Assembly: GCA_003194525.1 (NCBI GenBank) | Contig: NBIV01000043.1 | Span: 353,818-417,817, forward strand | DNA from: Gracilariopsis chorda | Taxonomy: Eukaryota > Rhodophyta > Florideophyceae > Gracilariales > Gracilariaceae | Direction: 5' to 3' | Length of the DNA: 64,000 bases | In this document: in pieces, positions 792-61,736 of the stretch | How positions within the stretch are numbered: the first letter of the stretch is position 1 | Layout of the letters: each line of letters opens with the position of its first letter | Position numbers and translations under genes: made by a program | The notes under the pieces: model-generated | The model's database searches: none | What the model was told of the DNA's origin: nothing | Seen by the model: only the letters and a program-made list of their open reading frames with translations

Positions 792-805
792 GGTTATGGG
801 CCCAG
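792..805 (+). other. Primer-binding site (initiator tRNA-Met half)
   Basis: GGTTATGGGCCCAG starts immediately after the LTR. It is complementary to the anticodon stem-loop (CUGGGCCCAUAACC) of eukaryotic initiator tRNA-Met, not to a tRNA 3' end. Drosophila copia has the same site and primes with a 5' half-tRNA. Confidence 0.9.
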
Positions 806-3948: not shown

Positions 3949-4727
3949 TGTTGAAAGTTGAAAGCAAGTTGAGGGGATGGAAGGGAAGTTCGCCAGCTCT
4001 GGCTTGGATTTACTTGGAGGTCCTTCAGGCACATCTTATATACCACTCTAAACTCGAATTGCGCGGGAACACCAACTACAAGTAAAACCTAAACCACTAA
4101 GCAGGGACACTCAATACTACCAATCATCATCTAACATGACATAGCCAGCTCAGCACAACCTCATTACATCAACGCACACCAACGCACCAACGTTCCGTAA
4201 TAGTTACGTGCATACACATGACCATGACAAGGCACAAATTCACGACTCCAACACACGCCAGCACATGCCAACACATCACGGTAAGTCAACACGTCACGGT
4301 AAGTCGGCACGTAACCTGTGGTGTTAGTGCCATGTCATCAAGTGCCAATGCACACAACACCCACGTCATCAATATACCCGTGCATGTGTAAACCTGTTGA
4401 CAGTGCATGCGCACCTTACCATTGTACCAACCACTGCTGTACCACTTGTACCAGGTGTCAACCACTTCACCAGTATCCCCTGCACACAACGTACACTGTG
4501 ACCACTGTAGTAGCTGGACACGTGGGTGTGTCCAACCGATCCAGTTATGCCATACCACTTGTACGCACCACGTTGCATATGTACATTTGCAGTAGCCAAT
4601 CAGAAGCCAGTTTCACGTTGGGTTCGCGCACACGCGCATATGCGCTTTTGCAGAGGTACCCTCCAAAACAGCCCATGCTCCCCGGAACATTTGGTTTTTA
4701 GTGACAGCACAGGTACTACTGCCAACA
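3949..4727 (-). repeat. 3' LTR of B-I
   Basis: 779 bp, bounded by target duplication AGTGC on the left and the C-rich complement of the polypurine tract on the right. On the sense strand it contains the GCGCATATGCGC palindrome, GATTGG and TATATAAG promoter elements seen in other LTRs here. Confidence 0.95.
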
Positions 4728-4740
4728 CCCCCCCTCTGTC
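4728..4740 (-). other. Polypurine tract of B-I
   Basis: On the sense strand GACAGAGGGGGGG abuts the 3' LTR. This is the usual plus-strand primer position in LTR elements. The same tract is at 44253-44262 (B-II) and 56474-56484 (B-III). Confidence 0.85.
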
Positions 4741-4747
4741 ACTGACT

Positions 4748-7700: not shown

Positions 7701-8773
7701 CACATCGCAGATACTGACAGCAGATGATACCTTAAATTCGGTACATGCACTACTTCACCCAACCGGTACTTGCTCTTACGCCCTTCAACAGTGAGATCGA
7801 GGTGGACACTGCCATGACCAAGAGACTCCAGCTTCGAGTCATTACCGATGCTCACACCGGCAGACTCTCTTTTGCTATAACTGTCAAACATGGACTCGTC
7901 ATACGTCATATGGGCGGTGGCACCAGAGTCAATAATCCAGTCACTGATACTTTCTTCCACAGAACCTGTCGCAATGAGACGAACAAAGTCAGAGTCACTG
8001 TCACATCCTCGTTTCTCGTTTCCGAGATCGGTCTGCACAGCTGGGTTTGCGGCAGCACTCTGCTCTTTGCTAGCTTCGTCACGTTGTCTCTTGAAACAGT
8101 TTCTCTGGATATGCCCCTTCTTACCACAGTAGTAGCACACCATGGACGTCTTTCGTGACTGCGCACCGACCAAAGCCGTGTCACTTCCGGACTCCTCCTT
8201 GGCACAATCGTTCATTCGCTGTTCCTCTTGCAGCAAACGACTCTTCACAAACTCTAAATCGAGTTTGCGATCACTAATCGTGGTGTCAATAGCGACAATG
8301 AGGTGTTCGAAGCGGTCTGGTAGCCCACATAGGATTGCCATAGCGATGTCTTCTTCCTCAAACACTACGTCCATGCTCTTAAGATCCGATGCAAGATGAC
8401 GAACACGATTGATGAAGTGTAATATTTTCTCATCATCTCGCATCTTGGCTGTGTAGAAGGCACGTCTTGCATTGATTCGGTTGAGCAGCGTTTTACGCTG
8501 GAACACATCGCAAATGGCTTTCCACATTTCCGCAGCATTCTCGGTATCCCTCACATGGTCCAAATGCTCATCACTAATGCTGAGACCAATAACAGCCCTG
8601 GCCTTGGCGTCTTTCTTCTTCCATGCTGACAACTCGTCATCTTCCGTAGGCCTGGTTGATTCAAGATGGTCATCGAGGTCCTTGAGTGCCAGCAGCACCT
8701 CAACCTTTTGCTTCCATACATGGAAGTTATCCTCGCCCAACTTTTCAATCTTGATGCCACCGAATGAATCCAT
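4748..8773 (-). pseudogene. B-I gag-pol polyprotein, broken
   Basis: Reads from ATG 8773-8771 to the end at 4748, about 1341 codons. Order: gag (UBN2-like), CCHC knuckle CYYC-GKKG-H-IQRN-C, protease DSGATAH, pre-integrase zinc domain (LWHARMAH...CDSC), integrase D,D(35)E (VHSD, RTDN, AERF), RT with YVDD, RNase H with DSDWAGD. Breaks: a one-base deletion near 7665 after the protease, a one-base insertion in an A run at 7258-7263 in the integrase, TAA at 6698-6700 and TAG at 5015-5017 in RNase H. Catalytic residues are otherwise kept, so the decay looks random and recent. Confidence 0.93.
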
Positions 8774-9975
8774 GCTTGGTAGATGTCAACAAACACCACA
8801 GGTGCGATGAAAGACCTACGGCACTTAAGTAGTACAAAAATGGCAACAACGACAACAATAACAACAAAAACAACGACAACAACAATAACAAAACTTCAAA
8901 TTCGGGCGCACTGACGAAAGATACTACCTCCACTACACTAGGGTGTCGGACCCCTGGCCCCCGGATATGCTCCGGGTACAAGACGTCTTCTTCTGTCTTC
9001 CCTCTCCTACGTCTAAGGAGAAGATGCGTCGCTCTTTACGAGGCTTCCAGAGGATGGTTAATGACCCAAGATATGCCTTCACCAAGTATAACCCTCTCTG
9101 GCCTCTTGCAAGAACTTGCGCGACCTTGAAACTGAAGCTACTATGGCAACCAAAGTACGCTGCTAACGCGCAACCACTTAAGGTCACACGCGGCCTGATC
9201 CTAAGAAGGAGGTCAGCCTACGCCACGTCGCCTCCCCGCACAAACGCCCAAGGGTCAGATGCACGGATCAAAAGGTTATGGAATACCTTCGCAACAGCCC
9301 AAGAATCCCGACACGCAGTCAGGATCAAAACAAATAACTCAATCACCCGCACCAGCGCAGTACGCCACGGCACCCCGTCCACAGATGCACCCGCTGAACT
9401 CACCAGGTCTTAACGACCGTCACCGTTATCTGTCCAAATGGACCGGTGGGAAGCCGCTCGACAGTACATCCGCTTTGGTTCAAGGCGCCAGGCTCACGTC
9501 CCCGGATACCTGGAATCACCCAAAGTAACCCGGATCAACCGCTCGTCGCACTGGAAACCAGATGATGACCAAGAAACACGAAATACAAACAACTGCTGAG
9601 CACACGATCACGGAGCCCAGACTTCGAAACTAGACCGACTAGACCCCACGGATACGACCCGACAAACGACTCGGGGATCCCAAAACACAAGATAGAGGGA
9701 GTGTCACACACAAAGTAGATAGCGATCGACAACACGGGCAACAACGGAGGCCCAACTCAACAACGATAGGAAGTAAACGTCGAACCACTACCACCACAAC
9801 GCCCTCAGGGAGGAACGCAAACCAAAGGAGAATGATCAACACCGACCAACAATGAGATCAAGACACCCGACGCAACGACGAAAGAGGCAACAACGGCGAA
9901 ACGGATGAACGGCGGTGAGGGAGAGCGGCGACAGACGAGCGATACGGAAAGGGATAGCGGCAGCGGTCAGCGGGG
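8774..9975 (-). other. Untranslated leader of B-I
   Basis: About 1.2 kb, longer than the family A leaders (about 0.78 kb). Next to gag is an AAC/GTT-rich run (8837-8891). The hairpin block shared with family A is at about 8911-8945 but degraded. An antisense open frame of 108 codons (9205-9528 on the + strand) is conserved in B-II and B-III; see separate entry. Confidence 0.75.
9205..9528 (+). other. Antisense open frame in the family B leader
   Basis: Open from a stop at 9202-9204 to the stop ending at 9528; first ATG at 9259. The product is rich in Pro, Gln and Ser in its first half and ends in a less biased stretch (…WTGGKPLDST…). The same frame is present in B-II (39454-39726, - strand) and B-III (61004-61276, + strand), with a 3-base indel that keeps frame. 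It could be a captured host fragment, an antisense gene, or chance. No family recognised. Confidence 0.3.
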
Positions 9976-9989
9976 CTGGGCCCATAACT
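9976..9989 (-). other. Primer-binding site of B-I
   Basis: Complement reads AGTTATGGGCCCAG, one base different (G to A) from the GGTTATGGGCCCAG site found in other copies; directly adjacent to the 5' LTR. Confidence 0.85.
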
Positions 9990-10768
9990 TGTTGAAAGTT
10001 GAAAGCAAGTTGAGGGGATGGAAGGGAAGTTTGCCAGCTCTGGCTTGGATTTACTTGGAGGTCCTTCAGGCACATCTTATATACCACTCTAAACTCGAAT
10101 TGCGCGGGAACACCAACTACAAGTAAAACCTAAACCACTAAGCAGGGACACTCAATACTACCAATCATCATCTAACATGACATAGCCAGCTCAGCACAAC
10201 CTCATTACATCAAAGCACACCAACGCACCAACGTTCCGTAATAGTTACGTGCATACACATGACCATGACAATGCACAAATTCACGACTCCAACACACGCC
10301 AGCACATGCCAACACATCACGGTAAGTCAACACGTCACGGTAAGTCGGCACGTAACCTGTGGTGTTAGTGCCATGTCATCAAGTGCCAATGCACACAACA
10401 CCCACGTCATCAATATACCCGTGCATGTGTAAACCTGTTGACAGTGCATGCGCACCTTACCATTGTACCAACCACTGCTGTACCACTTGTACCAGGTGTC
10501 AACCACTTCACCAGTATCCCCTGCACACAACGTACACTGTGACCACTGTAGTAGCTGGACACGTGGGTGGGTCCAACCGATCCAGTTATGGCATACCACT
10601 TGTACGCACCACGTTCCATATGTACATTTGCAGTAGCCAATCAGAAGCCAGTTTCACGTTGGGTTCGCGCACACGCGCATATGCGCTTTTGCAGAGGTAC
10701 ATTCCAAAATAGCCCATGCTCCCCGGAACATTTGGCTTTCAGTGACAGCACAGGTACTACTGCCAACA
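9990..10768 (-). repeat. 5' LTR of B-I
   Basis: 779 bp, same length and ends as 3949-4727; followed by the second AGTGC at 10769-10773. Confidence 0.95.
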
Positions 10769-21500: not shown

Positions 21501-22682
21501 TTGCTTGGCAGTGACCGTGGTGTTGTCTGCAAGTTCAATTGTCTTGTGTGGTATGTCCATCAATGTGTCTGGAACGAACGCAGATACAGAACAGAAGAAA
21601 TGAGCGGTGGCACCGCTGTCTGCATAGGTGTCGATGGAACTCTTAGTGGGAGGTACCTCTGATGACTTCTCACTTGCAACACCGACAATCTCAACCTTGG
21701 ATGCCTTCTGTGGCGATTTGCCAGAACGCCTGGGCTTTGCAACTGGGTTCAGCCTCAGTTGATCCAAGATTGCTTGTGGCAAATGGTTGTCAGGGTTGTC
21801 TGGATTCATGTGACACCGGTCTTGGGTGTGTCCATCACGCTCACAGAATGTGCAGTGGTATCCGTTTTTCCTTCCCGCAGCATATGCACGGCCATTTGAG
21901 TCATTCACGGCGGTGGAATCTGACGCATTACCATCAATTTCAGACCAATTGGCTAGTTTGCTGTGTCCACCCATTCGGGAACTACCTTTGTTCTTGTTCT
22001 TCTTGCGATTGCGACCTCTCCCTGCACTGCCAGATCCCATTTGACGAGCATTGTATTCATCAATTAGGGTGGTTGCCACATAGTCCCAGGTCAGTTCGGA
22101 GATCTCCTTGGTCCTAAGTGCTGCGGCAAGTTACTCCAAGGAGCAGTTGGGGTCAATAGATGCGAGCAACATAGGGGCCTTATGAGACTCAGGAATAGCA
22201 GCATCCTTTCCCATGCGATCCAATTGGGAGAAAAGAGATGCAAACTGGTCCACATACTCGGACATGTTCTGGCCGTTATAAGACATTCTGAACAGCTGTG
22301 TCTGTATGGCGATACGAGATACAGTCCTATTTGAGGCATATCGTGCATCCAGAAGCTGAAGCATCCGACCGGGGTCATCATCGACGTCCATAACAACACG
22401 AAGTGGGGCATCTCCAAGTGCACAAATGATGATTGCACACGCCTTTTCACGTTTTGCAAGTACACGGGAGGGAGTCTGGGTTGCACTAGAACCCGACGCC
22501 TGCGTCATTGTAGCGGTAGACGACTCCTCCGAACTCGCCAAAACGACATTCCAGACACCTTTAATACGACATGCGGCTCGTAACCGGTGTCGCCAGAGGG
22601 TGTAATCTTCTCCGCGCTTACCATGGAAGCGTGGGATCTTCACACCAGAGGTGGTTTCAGACTCAACTTCGGAGTCAGACAT
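18512..22682 (-). pseudogene. A1-II gag-pol polyprotein, main part
   Basis: Starts at ATG 22682-22680; about 1390 codons in one frame with three TAA stops: 22131-22133 (codon 184, shared with A1-I and A1-III), 21219-21221 just before LWHRRLAH, and 18627-18629 in RNase H. Domains are complete: CCHC knuckle, protease DSGATAH, zinc domain, integrase, acidic linker, RT with YVDDLLIF, RNase H. The second integrase Asp is Glu (LHSEN, codon 20832-20834), the same change as in A1-III. In several places it resembles the left half of A1-III more than A1-I (e.g. CRPCHLGKAH). Confidence 0.93.
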
Positions 22683-23466
22683 TGTTCCAGAAGGAGTTCA
22701 GTCACCAAAATTCGACGAAAATGATATGAAAATGAGGCAGTGTGAGGGACTCGATGCTTACACGATAGATCAGAAGCAGTTGGAGATGCTTGATCTGAGC
22801 ACAGCTATGGACTTGAAGCTGATGTCACACAAAATTGAGGTACTGGAGTGGAGAATACTCGACACTCAACAGCGAGGGCGCCAGCGGAGACTGTGTACCC
22901 AAGTCTCAACGCTCGTCCAGACGCGTCTGGTACGCGAATCACAAGTGGAGGTTGGGTCCTCTACACCTGGAATATACTCACAAGTGGCTCTGAAGCACAC
23001 TCGGAAAAGAAAGTAACTTCGTTAAAGCAGGCGCACTGACAGGAGATACTATCTCCGCTACCCTAAGGGTTGAACCCCTGGAACCTGGTAACTCTCTCCA
23101 GGTGAGGTACGAAATTCTTCTGACCTACCCTGTTCTGTGCACTTCAGAACGAGGGGCTTTACAATCCTTACGTGATTTCCCAGGGAAGGTTAATAACTCT
23201 CGCCATAAGTTTTCACCTATACTCCCCCACTGGTCACTTGCAGGAAAATAGCGCGGTCTTCCTCGTCCGCTAAAGCACAGGAGCAGGGATCGGATCAGGC
23301 GCAGGTCGGCTTACCAGAGAAGGGGTCTCTGAACGCTTTGCCTAATTTCACCACAACACCTGTACTTCGACAAGATACGCAAAACTTCTCGCTAGGACAG
23401 CTCCGTTGAACGCAAAAGAAAAGAAATGAAATCAATAGAGCGCGACGTCTGCGAAGAATCGACGAT
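22683..23466 (-). other. Untranslated leader of A1-II
   Basis: Conserved hairpin at 23042-23056 and palindrome CCAGACGCGTCTGG at 22917-22930; no long sense ORF. Confidence 0.75.
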
Positions 23467-28183: not shown

Positions 28184-28975
28184 TGTTATTGCAAAGAGAG
28201 GTTAGACCTGACCAAGATAAGAAAGAAAGAAAACGAAACAATACAAAGATGAAGGTTGCCAGGCTTGGGTCGGGTTTACTTGGAGGTGCCTCAAGCACAA
28301 TACTTATAGCACTTTGAGACACCACCTACAACTATCACTAAAACCTAAACGACTAAGCACAGACACCCGATACTACCAATCATCATCTAACATAACACAA
28401 TCATGCATGTAGAAACTCACGGCATCATGTGGCAAACATGCACAACAATGTGCCAGGGCACACTAATCAGGCACAATATGTGCCAGCGCATGCCAACAAA
28501 GCACAACAAGTCACGTGCATGCACATTACCATGACGCAGCACAAGTTCACAGGCCACATTACCATGACGCAGTACAAATTCACTTGCCAACACATCCAGA
28601 AGCATACTCTATCATAAGCTCATGTCGAGCACGTGCAATCGCACATATGCACACGTCAGCAACAATGACCAGCACCTGTAAACTGCACCCGTCACAAGCA
28701 CTCCTTTGCACAGCACACAATTACACTGTGCCAAGTGTGCCGTCACGTTCCATTGATCCAGAGACTCCCTACCACTTGTTAACCTTGTAATGCATAAGAG
28801 CATTTGCAGTAGCCAATCGTATACCCGTTTCACGTTGGGTTTGAGCACAGGAACATATTCTCTTTTGCAAACCACGTGCTCAAAAGTGCCCATCGTCATA
28901 TGCAGGTTTGTTTCCAAGTAGTTGACCATGAGGTCAGAGCACTACCAGGCACTCGACCATGTCCTAACATCAACA
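28184..28975 (-). repeat. 3' LTR of A3-I
   Basis: 792 bp, ends TGTT...CAACA on +. It is clearly related to A1 and A2 LTRs only in blocks: GATTGGCTACTGCAAATG (sense), the block before the TATA region, and the CCAAGTAAAC segment near the U5 end. The GCGCATATGCGC palindrome is degraded. The purine-tract complement CTCCTCGTC follows. Confidence 0.85.
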
Positions 28976-29010
28976 CTCCTCGTCGAGTTCATGGTTAGCA
29001 GCGATTTGCT

Positions 29011-31299
29011 TCATGTCAACGCGTACAAATGTAGAACAAAATGCGTTTGCCGGGTATCTCCACTCGGAAATAACGTCAAGTACAGCAGAGATCTAATGAT
29101 CTGCTGGTATGTGGGAACGTGGATAGGGGCCGTTTCCTCCTCCATAACTACACAAGTGAAAGAGTCCGTTCTCAAGACAAACGTATCATTTCCGTATAGC
29201 ATCGCGCGATCCTTCATAGTAAAAAATTCATAGTCCTTAGTAAATAAAAGGTCATAGACATGATGCTCCAGAGTCTGCAAGTACACTCCCTCAAGTGCAC
29301 GAGACTCGAACTTGGTGCCCGGGCTTATATGTATACCTTTCGCAACACATTCATACACCGTAGAATATTCGAACAAGTGCTTAATACCAGTAACCAAAAG
29401 GTACAGAGCTAAGTCCATAGCAGAAATTGGGACTGCAATGCGGTCCCTTATAACATCCGCTAGTGTAGTAGGAAAGAATGACGCTGCCAACCAGCGTGGT
29501 ACCACTGAGAATTCAAATGGCTTCCCCACTGCTGCAGTCATCAGTTGTGCATTCAAATTATGTCGTACAATGTAGGGTAGTGAGAACGACGTTTCTCGCC
29601 TCTTATACTTTGAATGCTTTGACAGATCAGTGAAATCTTCTGTGTCGTCAACGTGCAAACTTACCACATTCACACGCACTCCTCTGAGCTGCTGGAACTT
29701 TTGTTCGCATGTATTGCCAGTTGGACGCGTTTGACGCACCCCTTCCGGATGCACAAACTCTTTGATGCCACAAGCATTCTCATGAACCTGTTGTAAATGG
29801 CCGTGGCTCATACCAGATGTTCGGGGTTGCGCACTCCTAGTGGCAATGTGACATTCTCGCGCTGCGGGCCAACACTGTTGCCCATGTTCCATTGGACTTG
29901 GAAACATATCCAGCCGAGAACTCTTGTCTCGCAAAACACATCCAATGTCCAAACCATCTCTATATGTGACGATAAGTACACCTGCACGAAATAGAGACTG
30001 AATGCCTTTGTCGGCCATACGACCCACAGACACCAGGTTGTCTCCAAGATCCGGAACAAACAGTACATCTTTCAACCGTAGGTTAGCCCCTGGAAAGGGT
30101 ATGATGACATCCCCTCGCTGTGTGGCAGTGACTTTGGTGTTGTCTGCGAGCTCAACCGTTCGTAGATTAACATCAACCAATGTGTGTGGTACAAACGCTG
30201 ACAGAGAACCGAACAAATGTGAGGTGGCACCGCTGTCTGCATACACCTTCGTACCATCATGTGCAGATGTAGGCGTGGTCAACATCTCACCAACCAGGCC
30301 GGCTATCTCCACCTTTGACGATTTTCGAGACGCTTTTCCGGCGGATTTGGACTTCTCTTCACATTTAGAATTGAGTTGGTCCAAGATAATTTTTGGCAGA
30401 TGGTTGTCCGGGTTGTCGGGATTCATGTGACATCTATCATGGGTGTGCCCGTCGCGGTCACAGAACGTGCAATGATAACCATTCTTGAAAGAGGAAGCGT
30501 AATCGTGCCCAACAAACTCGCTATTACAGTAGTCATCTGCAAGGATATTCACATTTTGAACATCAGTTGGCGACCTACGCGAGACATGAGCAGGACAGTC
30601 GACATTGATCTTGTTCCGTTTGTGATCACAATTGCGCTTGGAACTTCTAGATCCCATCTGACGTGCATTGTACTCGTCGATCATCGTGGTAGCGACATAG
30701 TCCCAGGTGAGCTCCGACATGTTCTTCGTACGAAGAGCTGCAGCAGTGGACTCCAGTGAGCAGTTAGGGTCGATAGATGCTAATAGCATGGGAGCCTTAT
30801 GCGATTCAGGAATGGCCGCATCCTTCCCCATTCTATCCAGTTACGAGAACAATGTGGCAAATTGATCAACATACTCCGACGTATTCTGCCCATTGTACGA
30901 CATTTGGAACATCTGGGTCTGCACAGCGATGCGGGAGACTGTCCGGTTTGAGGCATAACGCGCATCCAACAGTCGAAGCATGCGTCCAGGGTCATCATCG
31001 ACATCCATCACAACGCGCAGTGGGGCATCTCCAAGTGCACAGATGATGATTGCACATGCCTTTTCACGATTTGCAATGAGTCGGGGACTGCTTTGAGCAA
31101 ACCCTGAGCCTGATTCCTGAGTCATAGTGGCACTAGTTGACTGGTCCATACTCGACACCACGACGTTCCAGGCACCTTCGATGCGACATGCAGCACGAAG
31201 TCGGTGTCGCCACAGGGTGTAGTCTTCACCACGCTTACCATGAAAGTGTGGGATCTTAACACCAGGTTTGGTTTCAGACTCAACTTCGGAGTCAGACAT
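29011..31299 (-). pseudogene. A3-I gag-protease ORF with dead integrase region
   Basis: 762 codons from ATG 31299-31297, with one stop, TAA at 30841-30843 (codon 153, Gln in relatives). The CCHC knuckle (C277, C280, H285, C290) and protease D355-S356-G357 lie at the same residue numbers as in intact A2-III, so gag and protease are collinear and kept. From about residue 480 the integrase is barely recognisable: no LWHRRLAH, no VHSD, LHSDN reads LHVDD, and the AER Glu is absent. A block at 656-690 (PGTKFESRALEGVYLQTLEH) is nearly identical to relatives. RT is absent; only a short YQQIIRSLLYLTL remnant precedes the end. Despite this, the frame stays open for about 600 codons after the stop. Confidence 0.85.
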
Positions 31300-31785
31300 A
31301 CTTCCAGAACGCGCTGAAACACCAGAAAAACACAACAAGTGAAGCAGAGTGAGGGACTCGATGCTTCCAAATCGATCACCAGGAAAGTAAAATGGTTGAT
31401 CGCAGACTCAGCCAATAACCACTAGCTGATTACAGATAATGAAAAAGAAACACTGGAGTGGAAATTGACAGCACTCAACAGTGACGGTGTGAGCGGAGAC
31501 GGTATATCAAGCCTCGACGCTCGGCAAAGCACGTCTTGAACGATAGTCACAGGCGGAGTTCGGGTACTCTACACCCGGATTTAACACACGAGTAGCTCAA
31601 AGGCAAACTCGGAAAAGAAAACAAAATGGTAAAGGCGGGCGCACTGACAGGAGATACTATCTCCGCTACCCTAAGGGTGGGACCCCTGGTCCCTGGTTAA
31701 TCTCTCCAGGTGAGGTGCGGTTTCTTCGACCTGCCCTACTCTGCGCACTTCAGAAGCAGGGTGCTCATTCCATACGAGACGTCCC
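31300..31785 (-). other. Leader of A3-I, gag-proximal part
   Basis: Carries the conserved hairpin (GGAGATACTATCTCC on +) at 31650-31664. The 14-bp palindrome of A1/A2 leaders is degraded here. TSD base run GTCCC ends at 31785, followed by the solo B LTR. Confidence 0.7.
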
Positions 31786-32564
31786 TGTTGACAGTAGTAC
31801 CTGTGCTGTCACTGAAAACCAAATGTTCCGGGGAGCATGGGCTGTTTTGGAGGGTACCTCTGCAAAAGCGCATATGCGCGTGTGCGCGAACCCAACGTGA
31901 AACTGGCTTCTGATTGGCTACTGCAAATGTACATATGCAACGTGGTGCGTACAAGTGGTATGCCATAACTGGATCGGTTGGACACACCCACGTGTCCAGC
32001 TACTACAGTGGTCACAGTGTACGTTGTGTGCAGGGGATACTGGTGAAGTGGTTGACACCTGGTACAAGTGGTACAGCAGTGGTTGGTACAATGGTAAGGT
32101 GCGCATGCACTGTCAACAGGTTTACACATGCACGGGTATATTGATGACGTGGGTGTTGTGTGCATTGCCACTTGATGACATGGCACTAACACCACAGCTT
32201 ACGTGCCGACTTACCGTGACGTGTTGACTTAGCGTGATGTGTTGGCATGTGCTGGCGTGTGTTGGAGTCGTGAATTTGTGCCTTGTCATGGTCATGTGTA
32301 TGCACGTAACTATTACGGAACGTTGGTGCGTTGGTGTGCTTTGATGTAATGAGGTTGTGCTGAGCTGGCTATGTCATGTTAGATGATGATTGGTAGTATT
32401 GAGTGTCCCTGCTTAGTGGTTTAGGTTTTACTTGTAGTTGGTGTTCCCGCGCAATTCGAGTTTAGAGTGGTATATAAGATGTGCCTGAAGGACCTCCAAG
32501 TAAATACAAGCTAGAGCTGGCGAACTTCCCTTCCATCCCCTCAACTTCCTTACAACATTCAACA
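31786..32564 (+). repeat. Solo family B LTR
   Basis: 779 bp, TGTTGACAG...TTCAACA, with target duplication GTCCC (31781-31785 and 32565-32569). No internal sequence, so it is the product of LTR-LTR recombination. Inserted in the A3-I leader. Confidence 0.94.
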
Positions 32565-32569
32565 GTCCC

Positions 32570-32601
32570 AGGGAGGTTAGTAACAAACGCGATATGTGTT
32601 C
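32570..32601 (-). other. Leader of A3-I, distal remnant
   Basis: 32 bases continuing the A3-I leader after the solo LTR; ends TGTTC, the left flank of A1-III. Confidence 0.65.
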
Positions 32602-33403
32602 TGTTGACGTTGACACGTGTTTGAGTGCCTGGTGGCCTTGGGACATCATGGTACACCACTTGGAAACAAAGTTTCATTTAACGATGGGCTGTTTTTGGCA
32701 CCTGCTTCGCAAAAGCGCATATGCGCCTGTGCCAAAACCCAACGTGAAACTGGCATATGATTGGCTACTGCAAATGCTCATATGCAGTATAGTGGTTACA
32801 AGTGGTGTGGAGTGTATGGACGATGGGCACGGCTTGGGACACTTGGCACAAGGTAACTGGATGATGCATGTCACATAGAATGTTTCTGCCTGTGATGTAC
32901 AGGTGCATGACAATACTGGTGACATGTGCCAATAGTGCACGGCACGTGCCAGGCACGCAATCATATTATGGTAATGGACTTAGGGCAATGTAGCATATGC
33001 AGTGTCATGCGAATTTGTGCTTTGTCATGGTTATGATGATGCAAGTAAGTGATTATACGGTGATATGGCATGCTGGCACAATGCTGGCATGATGTTTCAC
33101 TTACTGTGCTTCGTTGGCATGTGCTGGAATATTGTTATGCATGGTTGCGGTAAGCTGTTACGCACTTGCCCAACCCTAATTATGTTATGTTTCAATGTTA
33201 TTGGTAGTATTGGGTGTCCGCACTTAGTTGTATAGGGTTTTCTTGTAGTCGTCGTGTAACAAAGATCTGCTAGATAAGTTGCAAATGCTGCAGCTCCAAG
33301 TAAACCATCCGCCAAGCCTGGCAACCTTCACTTTTACTTTTCTTGTTTCTTTGTTTCTTTCTTTTCCTTCCCTACCGTAGCCCAACTTACATTTAAATTT
33401 ACA
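32602..33403 (+). repeat. 5' LTR of A1-III
   Basis: 802 bp (one base deleted in U3 near 33090). Lacks the private variants of the 3' LTR of the same element. Confidence 0.93.
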
Positions 33404-33417
33404 GGTTATGGGCCCAG
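33404..33417 (+). other. Primer-binding site of A1-III
   Basis: GGTTATGGGCCCAG directly after the LTR. Confidence 0.9.
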
Positions 33418-34201
33418 AGCGTCGATTCTTCGCAGACGTCGCGCTCTATTGATTTCATTTCTTTTCTTTTGCGTTCAACGGAGCTGTCCTAGCGAGAAGT
33501 TTTGCGTATCTTGTCGAAGTACAGGTGTTGTGGTGAAATTAGGCAAAGCGTTCAGAGACCCCTTCTCTGGTAAGCCGACCTGCGCCTGATCCGATCCCTG
33601 CTCCTGTGCTTTAGCGGACGAGGAAGACCGCGCTATTTTCCTGCAAGTGACCAGTGGGGGAGTATAGGTGAAAACTTATCGCAACAGTTATTAACCTTCC
33701 CTGGGAAATCACGTAAGGATTGTAAAGCCCCTCGTTCTGAAGTGCACAGAACAGGGTATGTCAGAAGAATTTCGTACCTCACCTGGAGAGAGTTACCAGG
33801 GTCCAGGGGTTCAACCCTTAGGGTAGCGGAGATAGTGTCTCCTGTCAGTGCGCCTGCTTTAACGAAGTTACTTTCTTTTCCGAGTGTGCTTCAGAGCCAC
33901 TTGTGAGTATACTCCAGGTGTAGAGGACCCGACCTCCACCTGTGATTCGCGTACCAGACGCGTCTGGACGAGCGTTGAGACTTGGTTACAGGGTCTCCGC
34001 TGGCGCCCTCGCTGTTGAGTGTCGAGTATTCCCCACTCCAGTACCTCAATTTTGTGTGACATCAGCTTCAAGTCCATAGCTGTGCTCAGATCAAGCATCC
34101 CCAACTGCTTCTGATCTATCGTTTAAGCATCGAGTCCCTCACACTGCCTCATTTTCATATCATTTTCGTCGAATTTTGGTGACTGAACTCCTTCTGGAAC
34201 A
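33418..34201 (+). other. Untranslated leader of A1-III
   Basis: Hairpin GGAGATAGTGTCTCC at 33828-33842, palindrome CCAGACGCGTCTGG at 33954-33967; no long sense ORF. Confidence 0.75.
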
Positions 34202-35258
34202 ATGTCTGACTCCGAAGTTGAGTCTGAAACCACCTCTGGTGTGAAGATCCCACGCTTCCATGGTAAGCGCGGAGAAGATTACACCCTCTGGCGACACCGG
34301 TTACGAGCCGCATGTCGTATTAAAGGTGTCTGGAATGTCGTTTTGGCGAGTTCGGAGTAGTCGTCTACCGCTACAATGACGCAGGCGTCGGGTTCTAGTG
34401 CAACCCAGACTCCCTCCCGTGTACTTGCAAAACGTGAAAAGGCGTGTGCAATCATCATTTGTGCACTTGGAGATGCCCCACTTCGTGTTGTTATGGACGT
34501 CGATGATGACCCCGGTCGGATGCTTCAGCTTCTGGATGCACGATATGCCTCAAATAGGACTGTATCTCGTATCGCCGTACAGACCCAGCTGTTCAGAATG
34601 TCTTATAACGGCCAGAACATGTCCGAGTATGTGGACCAGTTTGCATCTCTTTTCTCCCAATTGGATCGCATGGGAAAGGATGCTGCTATTCCTGAGTCTC
34701 ATAAGGCCCCTATGTTGCTCGCATCTATTGACCCCAACTGCTCCTTGGAGTAACTTGCCGCAGCACTTAGGACCAAGGAGATCTCCGAACTGACCTGGGA
34801 CTATGTGGCAACCACCCTAATTGATGAATACAATGCTCGTCAAATGGGATCTGGCAGTGCATGGAGAGGTCGCAATCGCAAGAAGAACAAGAAAAAGGTA
34901 GTTCCCGAATGGGTGGACACAGCAAACTAGCCAATCGGTCTGAAATTGATGGTAATGCGTCAGATTCCACCGCCGTGAATGACTCAAATGACCGTGCATA
35001 TGCTGCGGGAAGCAAAAACGGATACCACTGCACATTCTGTGAGCGTGATGGACAATCCCAAGACCGGTGTCACATGAATCCAGACAACCCTGACAACCAT
35101 TTGCCACAAGCAATCTTGGATCAACTGAGGCTGAACCCAGTTGCAAAGCCCAGGCGTTCTGGTAAATCGCCACAGAAGGCATCCAAGGTTGAGATTGTCG
35201 GTGTTGCAAGTGAGAAGTCATCAGAGGTACCTCCCACTAAGAGTTCCATCGACACCTA
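34202..35258 (+). pseudogene. A1-III gag, broken
   Basis: Starts at the family ATG (MSDSEVES). Breaks: TAG at 34358-34360, the shared TAA at 34751-34753 (codon 184), and a one-base deletion in the Lys/Asn-rich run near 34890. The CCHC knuckle has lost its His (CTFC-ERDG-Q-SQDR-C). Interrupted in the protease region by a solo LTR; flanking ACCTA is at 35254-35258. Confidence 0.92.
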
Positions 35259-36061
35259 TGTTATTCTAAATGTAAGTTGGGCTACGGTAGGGAAGGAAAA
35301 GAAAGAAACAAAGAAACAAGAAAAGTAAAAGTGAAGGTTGCCAGGCTTGGCGGATGGTTTACTTGGAGCTGCAGCATTTGCAACTTATATAGCAGATCTT
35401 TGTTCCACTACGACTACAAGAAAACCCTATACCACTAAGTGCGGACACCCAATACTACCAATAACATTGAAACATAACATAATTAGGGTTGGGCAAGTGC
35501 GTAACAGCTTACCGCAACCATGCATAACAATATTCCAGCACATGCCAACGAAGCACAGTAAGTGAAACAGTCATGCCAGCATTGCGCCAGCATGCCATAT
35601 CACCGTATAATCACTTACTTGCATCATCACAACCATGACAAAGCACAAATTCGCATGACACTGCATATGCTACATTGCCTTAAGTCCATTACCATAATAT
35701 GATTGCGTGCCTGGCACGTGCCGTGCACTATTGGCACATGTCACCAGTAGTGTCATGCACCTGTACATCACAGGCAGAAACATTCTATGTGACATGCATC
35801 ATCCAGTTACCTTGTGCCAAGTGTCCCAAGCCGTGCCCATCGTCCATACACTCCACACCACTTGTAACCACTATAATGCATATGAGCATTTGCAGTAGCC
35901 AATCATATGCCAGTTTCACGTTGGGTTTTGGCACAGGCGCATATGCGCTTTTGCGAAGCAGGTACCAAAAACAGCCCATCGTTAAATCAAACTTTGTTTC
36001 CAAGTGGTGTACCATGATGTCCCAAGACCACCAGGCACTCGAACACGTGTCAACGTCAACA
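35259..36061 (-). repeat. Solo A1 LTR inside A1-III
   Basis: 803 bp antisense to its host, with target duplication ACCTA (35254-35258, 36062-36066). No internal region: LTR-LTR recombination product. It interrupts the protease just before DSG. Confidence 0.94.
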
Positions 36062-38213: not shown

Positions 38214-38992
38214 TGTTGGCAGTAGTACCTGTGCTGTCACGGAAAACCAAATGTTCCGGGGAGCATGGGCTGTTTTGGAGGGTACCTCTGCAAAAGCGCA
38301 TATGCGCGTGTGTGCGAACCCAACGTGAAACTGGCTTCTGATTGGCTACTGCAAATGTACATATGGAACGTGGTGCGTACAAGTGGTATGGCATAACTGG
38401 ATCGGTTGGACACACCCACGTGTCCAGCTACTACAGTGGTCACAGTGTACGTTGTGTGCAGGGGATACTGGTGAAGTGGTTGACACCTGGTACAAGTGGT
38501 ACAGCAGTGGTTGGTACAATGGTAAGGTGCGCATGCACTGTCAACAGGTTTACACATGCACGGGTATATTGATGACGTGGGTGTTGTGTGCATTGCCACT
38601 TGATGACATGGCACTAACACCACAGCTTACGTGCCGACTTACCGTGACGTGTTGACTTACCGTGATGTGTTGGCATGTGCTGGCGTGTGTTGGAGTCGTG
38701 AATTTGTGCCTTGTCATGGTCATGTGTATGCACGTAACTATTACGGAACGTTGGTGCGTTGGTGTGCGTTGATGTAATGAGGTTGTGCTGAGCTGGCTAT
38801 GTCATGTTAGATGATGATTGGTAGTATTGAGTGTCCCTGCTTAGTGGTTCAGGTTTTACTTGTAGTTGGTGTTCCCGCGCAATTCGAGTTTAGAGTGGTA
38901 TATAAGATGTGCCAGAAGGACCTCCAAGTAAACCCAAGCCAGAGCTGGCGAACTTCCCTTCCATCCCCTCAACTTCCTTACAACTTTCAACA
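38214..38992 (+). repeat. 5' LTR of B-II
   Basis: 779 bp, TGTTGG...TTCAACA. Palindrome GCGCATATGCGC 38296-38307, block shared with family A LTRs 38820-38866, TATA box TATATAAG 38899-38906. In the 3' copy the TATA box reads TATGTAAG. Confidence 0.95.
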
Positions 38993-39006
38993 GGTTATGG
39001 GCCCAG
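38993..39006 (+). other. Primer-binding site of B-II
   Basis: GGTTATGGGCCCAG next to the LTR; same half-tRNA-Met site as family A. Confidence 0.9.
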
Positions 39007-40216
39007 CCCCGCTGACCGCTGCCGCTATCCCTTTCCGTATCGCTCGTCTGTCGCCGCTCTCCCTCACCGCCGTTCATCCGTTTCGCCGTTGTTGCCTCTT
39101 TCGTCGTTGTATCGGGTGTCTTGATCCCATTGTTGGTCGGTGTTGGTCATTCTCTTTTGGTTTGCGTTCCTCCCTGAGGGCGTTGTGGTGGTAGTGGTTC
39201 GACGTTTACTTCCTATCGTTGTTGAGTTGGGCCTCCGTTGTTGCCCGTGTTGTCGATCGCTATCTACTTTGTGTGTGACACTCCCTCTATCTTGTGTTTT
39301 GGGATCCCCGAGTCGTTTGTCGGGTCGTATCCGTGAGGTCGAGTCGGTCTAGTTTCGAAGTCTGGGCTCCGTGATCGTGTGCTCAGCAGTTGTTTGTATT
39401 TCGTGTTTCTTGGTCATCATCTGGTTTCCAGTGCGACGAGCGGTTGATCCGGGTTACTTTGGGTGATTCCAGGTATCCGGGGACGTGAGCCTGGCGGCTT
39501 GAACCAAAGCGGGTGTACTGTCGAGCGGCTTCCCACCGGTCCATTTGGACAGATAACGGTGACGGTCGTTAAGACCTGGTAAGTTCAGCGGGTGCATCTG
39601 TGGACGGGGTGCCGTGGCGTACTGCGCTGGTGCGGGTGATTGAATTATTTGTTTTGATCCTGACTGCGTGTCAGGATTCTTGGGCTGTTGCGAAGGTATT
39701 CCATAACGAGCTTTTGATCCGTGCATCTGACCCTTGGGCGTTTGTGCGGGGAGGCGACGTGGCGTAGGCTGACCTCCTTCTTAGGATCAGGCCGCGTGTG
39801 ACCTTAAGTGGTTGCGCGTTAGCAGCGTACTTTGGTTGCCATAGTAGCTTCAGTTTCGAGGTCGCGCAAGTTCTTGCAAGAGGCCAGAGAGGGTTATACT
39901 TGGTGAAGGCATATCTTGGGTCATTAACCATCCTCTGGAAGCCTCGTGGAGAGCGACGCATCTTCTCCTTAGACGTAGGAGAGGGCAGACGGAAGAAGAC
40001 GTCTTGTACCCGGAGCATCTCCGGGGGCCAGGGGTCCGACACCCTAGGGTAGCGGAGGTAGTATCTCCCGTCAGTGCGCCCGAATTTGAATTTTTGTTGT
40101 TATTGTTGTCGTTGTTTTTTGTTGTTATTGTTGTCGTTGTTGCCATTTTTGTACTACTTAAGTGCCGCAGGTCTTTCTTTCATCGCACCTGTGCTGTTTG
40201 TTGACATCTACCAAGC
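39007..40216 (+). other. Untranslated leader of B-II
   Basis: 1.2 kb. Strong hairpin CCCGGAG-CAT-CTCCGGG at 40009-40025, then the block shared with family A including GGAGGTAGTATCTCC at 40054-40068, then a GTT-rich run (about 40095-40143) up to the gag region. An antisense open frame covers 39454-39726. Confidence 0.75.
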
Positions 40217-43200
40217 ATGGATTCATTCGGTGGCATCAAGATTGAAAAGTTGGGCGAGGATAACTTCCATGTATGGAAGCAAAAGGTTGAGTTGCTGCTT
40301 GCACTCAAGGACCTCGATGACCATCTTGAATCAACCAGGCCTACGTAAGATGACGAGTTGTCAGCATGGAAGAAGAAAAATGCCAAGGCCAGGGCTGTTA
40401 TTGGTCTCAGCATTAGTGATGAGCATTTGGACCATGTGAGGGATACCGAGAATGCTGCGGAAATGTGGAAAGCCATTTGCGATGTGTTCCAGCGTAAAAC
40501 GCTGCTCAACCGAATCAATGCAAGACGTGCCTTCTACACAGCCAAGATGCGAGATCATGAGAAAATGTTACACTTCATCAATCGTGTTCGTCATCTTGCA
40601 TCGGATCTGGAGAGCATGGACGTAGTGGTTGAGGAAGAAGACATCGCTATGGCAATCCTATGTGGGCTACCAGACCGCTTCGAACACCTCATTGTCGCTA
40701 TTGACACCACGATTGGTGATCGCAAACTCGATTTAGAGTTTGTGAAGAGTCGTTTGCTGCAAGAGGAACAGCGAATGAACGATCGTGCCAAGGAGGAGTC
40801 CGGAAGTGACACGGCTTTGGTCGGTGCGCAGTCACGAAAGAAGTCCATGGTGTGCTACTACTGTGGTAAGAAGGGGCATATCCAGAGAAACTGTTTCAAG
40901 AGACAACGTGACGAAGCTAGCAAAGAGCAGAGTGCTGCCGCAAACCCAGCTGTGCAGACCGATCTCGGCAACGAGAAACGAGGATGTGACAGTGACTCTG
41001 ACTTTGTTTGTCTCATTGCGACAGGTTCTGTCGAAGAAAGTATCAGTGACTGGATTATTGACTCTGGTGCCACCGCCCATATGACGTATGACGAGTCCAT
41101 GTTTGACAGTTATAGCAAAAGAGAGTCTGCCGGTGTGAGCATCGGTAATGACTCGAAGCTGGAGTCTCTTGGTCATGGCAGTGTCCACCTCGATCTCGCT
41201 GTTGAAGGGCGTAAGAGCAAGTGCCGGTTGGGTGAAGTAGTGCACGTACCGAATTTAAGGTATCATCTGCTGTCAGTATCTGCGATGTGTGACCTTGGTG
41301 CGCGAGTGGTGTTTGACAAAACCAAAGTATGCGTATACAAAGGCAACACCATAATCGCCCAGGGCCGTCGCATCAAAGGACTGTACTACCTATGTACCGC
41401 GATTGAAGTACCAGAAGACATGGACAACGCACTTGTGACTGACCTGTCACTATGGCATGCTCGAATGGCTCATGTGAATGTGGATGGTATCAAACATATG
41501 GCTCGTAACGGTGTTGTGTCAGGGCTGAATGTGGACTTGAATCAATCGATGGATGTGTGTGACTCTTGTGTAGTGGGAAAATCTACACGGGCTCCAACTC
41601 CCAAGCAAGGGGGGGAACGGGCTTCGCACCCATTGGACCTAGTGCATTCGGACATTTGTGGTCCAATCCAAGTAGGTTCCTTGGGAGGTTCACGCTACTT
41701 CGTCACATTCATCGATGATCACTCCCGTTTTTGCTTCTTGTACATGCTGAAGACCAAGGATGAGGTGTTCCACGTGTTCGTGAAGTGGCTCAAGATGGTT
41801 CAAAATCAGAGTGACCGACATGTGAAAACCATCACCGCACGTGAGTCTGTGCTACATGCGTTACGCACAGACAATGCTGGTGAATATGTGTCAAAGAAGT
41901 TTTCACAAGAGCTTGAACGTCACGGTATTGAACCTCAGCGAACGGTGCCTTACAATCCACATCAGAATGGTCTGGCCGAACGGTTCAACCGAACACTCAT
42001 GGACTTGGTGAGATCGATGCTGCATCACAAGAAACTGCCAAAGAGCTTCTGGGCTGAAGCATTGAACGTTGCAGTGTATGTGCGCAATCGAGTCACCTGC
42101 AAGGCCCTTCCGAGTGACGTGACACCACTCGAGATGTGGAGTGGATATGAACCAGACTTGAGCAATCTGCGTGTGTTCGGTAGCCGGTGCTGGTACAAAG
42201 TGGTGGACCACAAGCTGAAGAAGCTGGAGCAACGTGCCGTGGAGGCGATCTTTATTGGGTACACATCTGGATCGAACGGTTATAAACTGTGGGATGCGCA
42301 AAAGAAGAAGGTGGTTGTGTCGAGGGATGTGAGGTTTGACGAATGTAGTGGTTCAGATCAAGGTACTGACCACGTTAATGATGACGACTATGCTGAGATC
42401 GACGTCTCGGACAAGCCGAAATCAAACATCACCTCCACCTCTACTACACCCACCAATGCTGCCCAAGGTGAACCCGCTGCACCAGATACTCCACCAGAAG
42501 AAGCTTCAGGCAGTAGCCACGATGAGCCCACAGCTGAGACAGAAGTTGAGCCAGACGTACCAGATCCACCACCACTTCGGAGATCCACTCGTGAGCGTAG
42601 AGCGCCTACCTCGTGGTGGCGCGGAACTGCCCTACTCACTGCCAGTGATGACATCCCATCCTCATACTCGGATGCGGTGTCACGTCCTGATTCAAAAGCG
42701 TGGACCAAGGCCATGAGCAGTGAGTACGAGTCTCTGATGGAGCATGACACATGGGAGTTAGTGCCAAGGCCAGCTGACAGCAACGTGATATCATCCAAGT
42801 GGATTTTTGTGCAAAAATATGAGGCTGGCGACAACGATGAACCGACAGTAAGGTACAAGGCTCGTGTGGTGGCTCGAGGGTTTCTGCAGATCGAAGGTGT
42901 AGACTTCTCCGAGACGTATGCAGCAGTGGTCAAATTCACATCCATTAGAATGATTCTGTCCATTGTAGCAGTGCAGGACTATCATCTGCACCAGATGGAT
43001 GTGAAGACTGCATTCTTGAATGGCGACCTGGAAGAGACTGTGTACATGGAGCAGCCAGACGGATTCATCAAACCTGGGAACGAGGACTTGGTATGCCTTC
43101 TCAAGAAAGCCATCTATGGGCTACGACAGGCATCAAGGCAGTGGTTTGCAAAGATGTACTTGTTCCTCGTGGGTTGGATGGGTCTGAAGCCAAACGTTGC

Positions 43201-44242
43201 AGACGAGTGCGTCTACACCGGAGAGGTACTGGGAGCGCTTGTGATCATTGCTCTTTATGTGGACGACTTGCTCATTGCGAGTCCAAGTATGGAGACAATG
43301 AATCGCGTAAAGCGTGAACTGTCAAAACGTTTTCAGATGAAGGATCTCAGTGAAGCGCGCATGGTACTTGGGTTCGAGATCCATCGTGATCGATCCAAAA
43401 GACTGCTGTACCTGACACAGTCTGCATACACGCGTAAGGTCTTAGAACGCTTTGGCATGTTGCAGTGCAAACCAATGGACACTCCCATGGACTCCGGTGT
43501 TGACCTCACTAAGGTAGAGGAGCCTCTGACGAACATCCCGTATCGCCAGGTGATCGGTTGTCTGATGTATCTCTCTGTTGGCACTCGACCGGACATCTCG
43601 TTTGCAGTGTCCGAGCTAGCCAAGTATGTCGAGAACCCTGGAGAGACTCATTGGAAAGCGGTCAAGCGTGTTCTGCGTTACGTCAATGGCACTCGCTCCT
43701 TCGGACTTACTTATGGCACCACGACTGATACTCAGCTGTATGGATACGTAGACTCTGACTGGGCAGGTGATACATCCAACCGCAAGTCCACCAGTGGGTA
43801 TGTGTTCATGATGTGCGGTGCTCCTGTGTCTTGGAGCTCGCGCCAACAGGAAGTAGTTGCATTGTCCAGCGCTGAGGCTGAGTATGTGAGTCTGTGCAGT
43901 GGGACGAAGGAGGCGATCTGGCTGAGACGACTGTGGAGTGGCATTGGCAACGCAAGTGGACTACACGTGGATGAGTCAGTGACGCTAATGGTTGAGCCCA
44001 CAACTGTGTACGTGGACAACCAAGGTTGCATCGACCTTGCTAGAAATGGAGTTGTGAACAAGCGTACTAAGCACATTGATATTCGCTTTCACTTCACCAG
44101 AGAGGCTCTACGCGACAAAGCCTTCCAGTTGCAGTACTGTTCCACGGAAGACATGGTTGCAGATATGCTGACGAAAGCGCTCGGTCGAGTTAAGCTGGCA
44201 AGGTTCCGCGGTGACTGTGGCTTGCTCCCCTTAGACCTTTGA
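40217..44242 (+). pseudogene. B-II gag-pol polyprotein, one nonsense codon
   Basis: 1341 codons from ATG 40217, closed only by TAA at 40346-40348 (codon 44; GAA or GAC in the other copies). Beyond it the frame is open to 44242; the first in-frame ATG would leave out the gag N-terminus. Residues: CCHC C213, C216, H221, C226; protease D282-S-G; zinc domain from about 414; integrase D479, D552, E588 (35 residues between the last two); RT Asp 928 and YVDD 1014-1017; RNase H Asp 1179. One odd RT residue: YAAVVKF instead of YAPVVKF. All known catalytic residues are present. Confidence 0.93.
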
Positions 44243-44252
44243 AGTCAGTGAC

Positions 44253-44262
44253 AGAGGGGGGG
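44253..44262 (+). other. Polypurine tract of B-II
   Basis: AGAGGGGGGG immediately before the 3' LTR and after the stop codon. Confidence 0.88.
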
Positions 44263-45041
44263 TGTTGGCAGTAGTACCTGTGCTGTCACTGAAAACCAAA
44301 TGTTCCGGGGAGCATGGGCTGTTTTGGAGGGTACCTCTGCAAAAGCGCATATGCGCGTGTGCGCGAACCCAACGTGAAACTGGCTTCTGATTGGCTACTG
44401 CAAATGTACATATGGAACGTGGTGCGTACAAGTGGTATGGCATAACTGGATCGGTTGGACACACCCACGTGTCCAGCTACTACAGTGGTCACAGTGTACG
44501 TTGTGTGCAGGGGATACTGGTGAAGTGGTTGACACCTGGTACAAGTGGTACAACAGTGGTTGGTACAATGGTAAGGTGCGCATGCACTGTCAACAGGTTT
44601 ACACATGCACGGGTATATTGATGACGTGGGTGTTGTGTGCATTGCCACTTGATGACATGGCACTAACACCACAGCTTACGTGCCGACTTACCGTGACGTG
44701 TTGACTTACCGTGATGTGTTGGCATGTGCTGGCGTGTGTTGGAGTCGTGAATTTGTGCCTTGTCATGGTCATGTGTATGCACGTAACTATTACGGAACGT
44801 TGGTGCGTTGGTGTGCGTTGATGTAATGAGGTTGTGCCGAGCTGGCTATGTCATGTTAGATGATGATTGGTAGTATTGAGTGTCCCTGCTTAGTGGTTCA
44901 GGTTTTACTTGTAGTTGGTGTTCCCGCGCAATTCGAGTTTAGAGTGGTATGTAAGATGTGCCTGAAGGACCTCCAAGTAAACCCAAGCCAGAGCTGGCGA
45001 ACTTCCCTTCCATCCCCTCAACTTCCTTACAACTTTCAACA
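44263..45041 (+). repeat. 3' LTR of B-II
   Basis: 779 bp, followed by CAGTA and A1-III RT sequence. Confidence 0.95.
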
Positions 45042-56473: not shown

Positions 56474-56493
56474 CCCCCCCTCTGTCACTGACT

Positions 56494-61722: not shown

Positions 61723-61736
61723 CTGGGCCCATAACC
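61723..61736 (-). other. Primer-binding site of B-III
   Basis: CTGGGCCCATAACC on +, adjacent to the 5' LTR. Confidence 0.9.

What the first reader, a model, noticed from the sequence alone, without database searches (positions are those of the whole stretch)
28976..31299. A3-I: long open frame kept across a catalytically dead integrase, no RT
The 762-codon ORF keeps gag, CCHC knuckle and protease DSG at the same residue numbers as the intact A2-III, but the integrase has lost its zinc motif and its D, D and E, and the RT is deleted. About 600 codons after the single stop are nevertheless open. Neutral decay at this level of amino-acid change should have left several stops. One block (residues 656-690) stays nearly identical. 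This looks like a gag-providing, parasitic lineage whose frame was maintained, or an ORF given a new role. Gag-only copia derivatives that depend on partners are known in plants; this particular form is not one I recognise.
Basis: partly seen in the sequence, partly recalled or inferred. Interest (0 to 1): 0.75.

Follow-up and report, generated by a model that had tools for sequence, protein, structure and literature searches.

The report
Gag-keeping copia element, dead integrase
A small family of jumping genes has lost its own copying and insertion enzymes, kept its particle-forming gene under selection, and still carries its useless integrase as an unbroken reading frame, probably by hitching rides on a complete relative; such riders are known in plants, and the unbroken dead stretch is the unusual part.

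Summary
The ORF is real. It lies on the MINUS strand (31299 to 29014), with a stop at codon 153 and an end at codon 763. It belongs to a rare non-autonomous Ty1/copia family. Searches of the 91.3-Mb assembly found two insertion loci: A3-I (plus a 99.7% copy on contig C502, probably its other haplotype) and A3-II, about 33 kb away. A3-II is a full element: two LTRs, a 5-bp target duplication, a primer site shared with A2, and a 776-codon frame without the codon-153 stop. No A3 copy with integrase or RT was found.

On the stem branch, gag stayed under purifying selection (omega 0.09, as background). Integrase-derived codons evolved near neutrality (0.76; 1 not rejected, background 0.17 rejected). 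Roughly 5 stops and 4-7 frameshifts are expected in 169 such codons; none is seen. The frame, not its content, was preserved. This is a gag-keeping, probably trans-mobilised lineage, like plant TR-GAG elements or RLG_Quinta, not decay of one element.

Corrections: the second catalytic Asp aligns as kept; the 'identical' block is conserved at synonymous sites too. Between the two copies omega is 0.70, not distinguishable from 1. Why the frame stays open is inferred.

The parts
28184..28975 (-). 3' LTR of A3-I (TGTTGATGTT...TAACA), 792 bp
   Evidence: 5 LTRs of this family among 44 places, one (C502) 791 bp, the others 757-759 bp as cut
28976..28995 (-). polypurine tract and end of ancestral coding frame next to the LTR, shared with A2 (CTCGA[G/C]GAGGAG|TGTTGATGTTAG)
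29011..29013 (-). stop ending the A3-I frame (codon 763), reached after a frameshift near codon 750; A3-II runs on to the ancestral A2 stop
29014..31299 (-). A3-I reading frame, 762 codons, one internal stop
30841..30843 (-). internal stop, codon 153 (also in the C502 copy, absent from A3-II)
30625..31299 (-). gag, residues 1-225; stem omega 0.088
30430..30471 (-). CCHC zinc knuckle, residue 277 on (first Cys lost in A3-II)
30217..30237 (-). protease motif DSGATSH, residue 355 on; Pol_BBD domain match around it; 34 of 36 A2-invariant residues kept in A3-II
29230..29949 (-). integrase-derived tail, residues 451-690: zinc motif, first Asp and Glu lost, about 66 codons deleted in frame, near-neutral amino-acid evolution, no stop
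29080..29109 (-). RT/RNase H remnant, residue 731 on
31300..31785 (-). A3-I 5' leader, alignable to A2 leaders
31786..32564 (.). solo LTR of the other copia family (B) inserted in the A3-I leader; target duplication GTCCC at 31781-31785 and 32565-32569
32570..32601 (-). remaining A3-I leader, matched by eye to the A3-II leader, cut by an A2-type LTR from about 32602; A3-I 5' LTR not found in the window

Best explanation
A3 is a rare non-autonomous Ty1/copia family that split off the A2 kind as a deletion derivative. SHOWN: it lost RT/RNase H and integrase motifs, kept LTRs, polypurine tract, primer site and leader, and kept gag (and, less clearly, protease) under purifying selection on its stem branch. 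Two separate insertions lack the enzymes, and one of them, A3-II, has two LTRs and a 5-bp target duplication. SHOWN as an excess over neutral expectation: the integrase-derived tail stayed open and in frame to the ancestral polyprotein stop next to the 3' LTR while its amino acids drifted almost freely. INFERRED: A3 RNA is packaged, reverse-transcribed and integrated by enzymes of intact A2 copies (18 A2-like places with 1433-codon frames), while A3 contributes Gag, perhaps with protease, to shared particles. INFERRED, weaker: the tail is kept open because ribosomes must reach the natural stop beside the 3' LTR. A stop or frameshift would leave a long untranslated 3' part (RNA decay) or change the C-terminus of the Gag-protease precursor; the tail's content does not matter.
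For: Second copy: full element C43:348939-353430, LTRs at both ends, target duplication ACTAG on both sides, frame of 776 codons ending at the stop homologous to A2's. Its flank lies at a different A2 position from the left flank of A3-I (window 28183), so the two are separate insertions. The primer site of A3-II is identical over 18 nt to that of four A2-type copies in the window; 14 nt of it are complementary to the anticodon arm of a genomic tRNA-Met gene (by eye). Gag stem omega 0.088, p=2e-9 against 1, equal to background; protease/BBD 0.36, p=0.034 against 1; IN core 0.76, p=0.3 against 1 and 3e-6 against background. Simple control: at like dS (1.58 and 1.53), IN-core dN is 0.53 for A3-II vs L065 but 0.13 for L065 vs A2-III; in gag dN is 0.12 and 0.09. 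A2-invariant residues kept by A3-II: 34 of 36 in protease/BBD, 5 of 15 around the zinc motif, 30 of 60 in IN core, 16 of 26 in the SH3 part. Expected stops 4.35-6.0 in 169 codons for stem lengths 1.0-1.5, none seen. In 11 decayed A2-type copies I counted 17 frameshifts and 22 stops against 652 substitutions, giving 4.0-6.6 frameshifts expected at stem lengths 0.9-1.5, none seen; joint P about 2e-4 to 5e-6 if independent. Possible helper: 18 of 137 scored places have a 1433-codon frame; one of them, A2-III, was scanned and matches gag, integrase and RT models.
Against: Only two insertion loci were found, so selection is read from one stem branch. Synonymous sites are near saturation (dS often above 1) and the IN core aligns at low amino-acid identity. 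Between A3-I and A3-II omega is 0.70 overall, gag-protease 0.61, not significantly below 1, so selection on gag is not shown for the recent past; tip omega in the gag model is 0.68. Neither copy has an unblemished gag: A3-I has a stop, A3-II has lost the first Cys of the zinc knuckle; the C502 copy has three more one-base length differences, real or assembly errors. No transcript or protein data. A mosaic origin (gag from an unseen autonomous relative, tail older) is not excluded. The LTR body is only about 67% like A2's, so co-expression is unproven.
Confidence: 0.7

Rival explanations
1. Simple decay: A3 is a defective A2-like element, and the long open frame is luck in a young pseudogene.
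For: A3-I/A3-II omega 0.70, not distinguishable from 1; a stop and a frameshift in A3-I; knuckle Cys lost in A3-II and three one-base length differences in the C502 copy.
Against: Gag stem omega 0.088 over a stem of about 1.3 neutral substitutions per codon; about 10 frame-breaking events expected in the tail and none seen; two separate insertions, one with a target duplication; since the split of A3-I and A3-II 2 breaks were seen against 7.1 expected (P=0.027; the three length differences of the C502 copy are not in this count).
Confidence: 0.12
2. The integrase-derived tail has a new protein function, for instance as a Gag extension, and was remodelled by adaptive change.
For: Frame preserved; with the stem length set to 1.5 the tail omega is 1.17, which mixed adaptation and constraint could give; tip omega 0.69 in IN core, 0.61 in IN+SH3 (not significant).
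Against: No significant excess over neutrality; no Pfam or PDB match; half of the A2-invariant IN-core residues lost; the best-conserved block is conserved at silent sites too.
Confidence: 0.12
3. Mosaic: gag came recently by template switching from an autonomous element, the tail from an older non-autonomous line, so gag's conservation reflects an autonomous past.
For: Fitted stem length is longer in IN core (2.28) than in gag (1.27) or protease (1.06); recombination between such partners is proposed for RLG_Quinta (PMC11302176, passages read).
Against: A common stem length near 1.5 is within 2 log-likelihood units for all three regions in a conditional profile; A3 groups with the L065 kind in both gag and protease-IN trees; no donor with A3-like gag above 81% among the 40 scored places.
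Confidence: 0.15

Closest known systems
TR-GAG elements (terminal-repeat retrotransposons with GAG domain; e.g. AT5TE33540 of ATCOPIA63; PMC8704663, passages read; also PMC9784723, passages)
   Same: Two LTRs, single ORF with Gag, no RT or IN, an intact relative as presumed helper; transposition of one shown in a ddm1 Arabidopsis mutant
   Different: A3 keeps protease and a long, dead, in-frame integrase tail; its host is not identified; mobility of A3 is shown only from LTRs and a target duplication
RLG_Quinta, partner of RLG_Cereba in wheat (PMC11302176, passages read)
   Same: Non-autonomous element with Gag plus a downstream domain of unknown function; primer site and LTR ends shared with an autonomous partner
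   Different: Quinta is of another superfamily (RLG, gypsy), 935 full-length copies in one assembly, centromere-specific; its extra domain is of unknown origin, while A3's tail is traceable to integrase
Gag-only Athila families (PMC2410132, passages read)
   Same: Whole families without pol whose gag frames are under purifying selection
   Different: Athila type, many copies; no dead-integrase frame reported in the passages read
BARE2 (PMC3735527, passages read)
   Same: Copia element depending on a partner in trans
   Different: Mirror image: BARE2 cannot make Gag and is packaged in BARE1 particles; A3 keeps gag and lacks enzymes

Membership tests
Ty1/copia LTR retrotransposon | copia-type gag, and protease region upstream of integrase-derived region | tested here: met
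   Retrotran_gag_2 E=2.7e-10 and Pol_BBD E=6e-15 in A3-II pieces; order gag-PR-IN-RT remnant
Ty1/copia LTR retrotransposon | two LTRs, primer site, polypurine tract, target duplication | tested here: met
   A3-II. A3-I: 3' LTR only; 5' LTR not found in window
TR-GAG-like non-autonomous element | single ORF with Gag, no functional IN or RT | tested here: met
   IN motifs lost, RT reduced to a remnant; A3 keeps protease as well
TR-GAG-like non-autonomous element | mobilised in trans by an autonomous relative | not testable with these tools
   Consistent: shared primer site and polypurine tract/LTR start, A2-like 1433-codon frames
TR-GAG-like non-autonomous element | gag under purifying selection after loss of pol (as reported for Athila) | tested here: met
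   Stem omega 0.088 while IN core 0.76 on the same branch; not significant between the two copies
Autonomous A2 family member | intact integrase and RT | tested here: not met
Domesticated host gene | single-copy, no LTRs, conserved content | tested here: not met
   LTR-flanked, in a nest of mobile elements, tail near neutral

The most novel reading that the evidence does not exclude
A mobile element in which selection acts on the openness and phase of a reading frame but not on the protein it spells: the integrase carcass serves as a translatable spacer that lets ribosomes reach the natural stop beside the 3' LTR, keeping the packaged RNA from decay or keeping a Gag-protease precursor of permitted end and length.
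Probability: 0.35. Interest if true: 0.6.

Novelty: new variant of a known kind. Interest (0 to 1): 0.45.

Why it matters
It shows, within one element and on one branch, gag held by selection while the integrase beside it drifts, which separates 'partner that keeps its own gag' from 'decaying copy' by sequence alone. The open but content-free tail makes a testable case for what a dependent element's RNA needs (translation to the natural stop) apart from what its proteins need. It also suggests how a domain of unknown function behind gag, as in RLG_Quinta, could arise from drifted pol sequence.

Tried and rejected
Central polypurine tract as the reason for the conserved block: its likeness to the 3' tract scored 20.5, reached by 8 of 60 shuffles, and two other places in the A2-III internal region scored 21.0 and 20.0; dropped. 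Block as protein-level constraint: SH3 omega on the stem 1.01 and silent sites conserved too; against this, the block is not a peak in the A2-III vs A2-I comparison and the contrast is not significant for A3-II vs L047, so a nucleotide-level constraint is also unproven. C502 as an independent third copy: rejected, because C502:1-20000 is collinear with the window (99.3% and 98.0%), with one extra solo LTR. Solo A3 LTR as an independent insertion: rejected, same flanks and same target duplication as A3-II, hence probably a duplicate of that locus. tRNA patterns of 23 and 20 nt found nothing; a 17-nt one found four places, two of which were fetched and read as tRNA-Met. Host identity: not determined; the 18S search gave no answer and a paper search by assembly size found one unrelated paper.

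Rows dropped from the decay control: of 20 copies aligned, 11 were used (figures entered by hand). L012, L027, L029, L042, L048, L055 were left out as under 3% from the nearest intact copy (their one-base indels may be assembly errors; L012 has 5 stops and 6 such indels); L020 as 14.5% away (190 substitutions, one in-frame 6-base indel, 1 stop, no frameshift); L047 and L065 as reference rows. Indels of 159-240 bases are end artefacts of the short L065 reference and were not counted; the totals printed there (36 frame-breaking, 10 in-frame) include them. The stop rate per substitution is somewhat overstated, since stops were counted over up to 440 codons and overlapping pieces but substitutions over about 360; the stop expectation I rely on is the model. 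In the gag model w14k and w2k were dropped as near-duplicates; in the profile run w21620 was dropped. The stop expectations entered for stem lengths 0.9 and 1.27 are interpolated.

Full report
OBSERVATION. The stated interval was checked on both strands. The + strand of 28976-31299 has many stops. The minus strand carries one frame from Met at 31299 to a stop at codon 763 (29013-29011), interrupted once at codon 153 (30843-30841). Gag, a CCHC box and a protease DSG motif are present. The zinc motif of integrase, the first catalytic Asp and the Glu are gone, about 66 codons are deleted in frame, and RT is reduced to a remnant. The second Asp aligns as retained, contrary to the finding.

COPIES. 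The window is part of contig C43 of a 91.3-Mb assembly of 1081 contigs. A DNA search with the 989 bases at the 3' end of the A3-I internal region gave 40 scored places: 3 covered the whole query at 94-100%, the other 37 only 91-181 bases. A protein search with most of the same part gave 137 scored places, 3 of them A3-like (86-100%) and 134 at 35-42%. The LTR search gave 44 places, 5 of them A3-like (92-100%), the rest 83% or less. The gag search gave 40 places, 3 at 95-100%, the next at 81%. The tool states that such counts are lower bounds. The best outside gag match (L065, contig C61) has an open frame with the integrase zinc motif and both Asp motifs before it breaks off, so it is an A2-like relative and not an A3 with pol.

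The C502 copy is 99.7% like A3-I over the frame, shares the codon-153 stop, has three one-base length differences, and lies in collinear sequence; it is most simply the other haplotype. A3-II, at C43:348939-353430, is a full element with an LTR at each end, target duplication ACTAG, and a frame of 776 codons that ends at the stop homologous to the end of the A2 polyprotein. The solo LTR at C43:344332-345090 has the same flanks and duplication, so it is probably a duplicate of the same insertion. A3-II LTRs differ by 2.8%; A3-I and A3-II LTRs by 4.4-4.5%. That leaves two insertion loci.

CIS SIGNALS. The primer site of A3-II is identical over 18 nt to that of four A2-type copies in the window. 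Fourteen of these nt are complementary to the anticodon arm of a tRNA-Met gene of this genome (comparison by eye). Priming from the middle of initiator tRNA-Met is how I recall Drosophila copia to work (recalled, not looked up). The polypurine tract and LTR start are near-identical to A2's. The LTR body is about 67% like A2's.

SELECTION. I wrote a codon model with branch-specific omega and fitted it to pieces. On the stem leading to A3-I and A3-II: gag, 225 codons, omega 0.088 (background 0.099; p=2e-9 against 1); protease/BBD, 100 codons, 0.36 (p=0.034 against 1, p=0.14 against background); IN core, 125 codons, 0.76 (p=0.3 against 1, p=3e-6 against background 0.165); SH3 part, 44 codons, 1.01. 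Fitted stem lengths are 1.27 (gag), 1.06 (protease) and 2.28 (IN core) neutral substitutions per codon; a conditional profile tolerates about 1.5 in all three, while IN core by itself does not tolerate 1.0. A simpler control agrees: for like dS, IN-core dN is 0.53 (A3-II vs L065) against 0.13 (L065 vs A2-III), while gag dN is 0.12 against 0.09. Between the two A3 copies the signal is weak: omega 0.70 overall (p=0.09), 0.61 for gag-protease (p=0.15), 0.64 for the IN-like part (p=0.25), 1.63 for residues 691-749 (p=0.53).

FRAME. Under neutral evolution 4.35-6.0 stops are expected in the 169 aligned integrase-derived codons for stem lengths 1.0-1.5; none is seen (P 0.0025-0.013). Eleven decayed A2-type copies more than 3% from the nearest intact one gave 17 frameshifts and 22 stops against 652 substitutions; at stem lengths 0.9-1.5 this predicts 4.0-6.6 frameshifts, none seen. 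Joint probability of neither is about 2e-4 to 5e-6 if events are independent. Since A3-I and A3-II split, one stop and one frameshift were seen against 7.1 expected (P=0.027); the three one-base differences of the C502 copy are not counted there. So openness and phase were kept while content drifted. The tail of A3-II matches no Pfam family and no PDB sequence, whereas the A2-III polyprotein matches gag_pre-integrs and SH3_retrovirus above their cut-offs and rve at E=1.3e-5 but below its cut-off.

THE CONSERVED BLOCK. Residues about 656-690 are conserved in A3, but so are their silent sites, in A3 and among several A2 kinds (A2-III vs L036: 16 of 23 identical codons in the block, 102 of 249 elsewhere, p=0.014; A2-III vs L047 p=0.028; A3-II vs A2-III: 18 of 22 against 53 of 124, p=0.0009; A3-II vs L047 14 of 19 against 83 of 137, p=0.32). 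The block was chosen after the fact and is not a peak in A2-III vs A2-I. Gene conversion or a nucleotide-level signal are open.

MECHANISM. Best reading: a gag-keeping dependent element moved by A2 enzymes; 18 of 137 scored places have 1433-codon frames. Shown: loss of enzymes, retention of cis signals, past selection on gag, at least one insertion as a complete LTR element, frame preservation beyond neutral expectation. Inferred: A2 as the helper, Gag contribution in trans, and the reason for the open tail (translation to the natural stop).

KNOWN RELATIVES. TR-GAG elements in plants (PMC8704663, passages; PMC9784723, passages), RLG_Quinta with RLG_Cereba (PMC11302176, passages), gag-only Athila families (PMC2410132, passages) and BARE2 (PMC3735527, passages) make the general kind known. 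In searches (listings seen, only the passages named above read) I saw no report of a copia dependent element with a drifted but open integrase frame; that is not proof of absence. Verdict: new variant of a known kind.

Noticed in passing
window 792-2644 (+), 21623-23260 (-), 33403-35260 (+): Three A2-type copies, about 98% alike, share one TAA stop at the same gag codon (about residue 184). An exact 29-base search found 4 places in the genome: these three and one on C502 that corresponds to the second. A stop-bearing A2 line seems to have been copied locally.
   Followed up: partly
window 3949-10768, 38214-45041, 55668-62544: Three copies (97-98% alike) of a 6.8-kb element of another copia family (B; frames up to 1297 codons) sit inside A2-type elements; its solo LTR lies in the A3-I leader.
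   Followed up: partly
window 35259-36061: A2-type solo LTR inserted inside another A2-type element, at about the start of its protease region.
   Followed up: no
C502:11299-12101 (locus L064, 1299-2101): A2-type solo LTR present on C502 where the window, otherwise collinear, lacks it: a likely insertion polymorphism between haplotypes.
   Followed up: no
C43:344332-382792 (L061, L062, window): The four A3-like LTRs found outside C502 (of 44 places) lie within about 39 kb of contig C43.
   Followed up: partly
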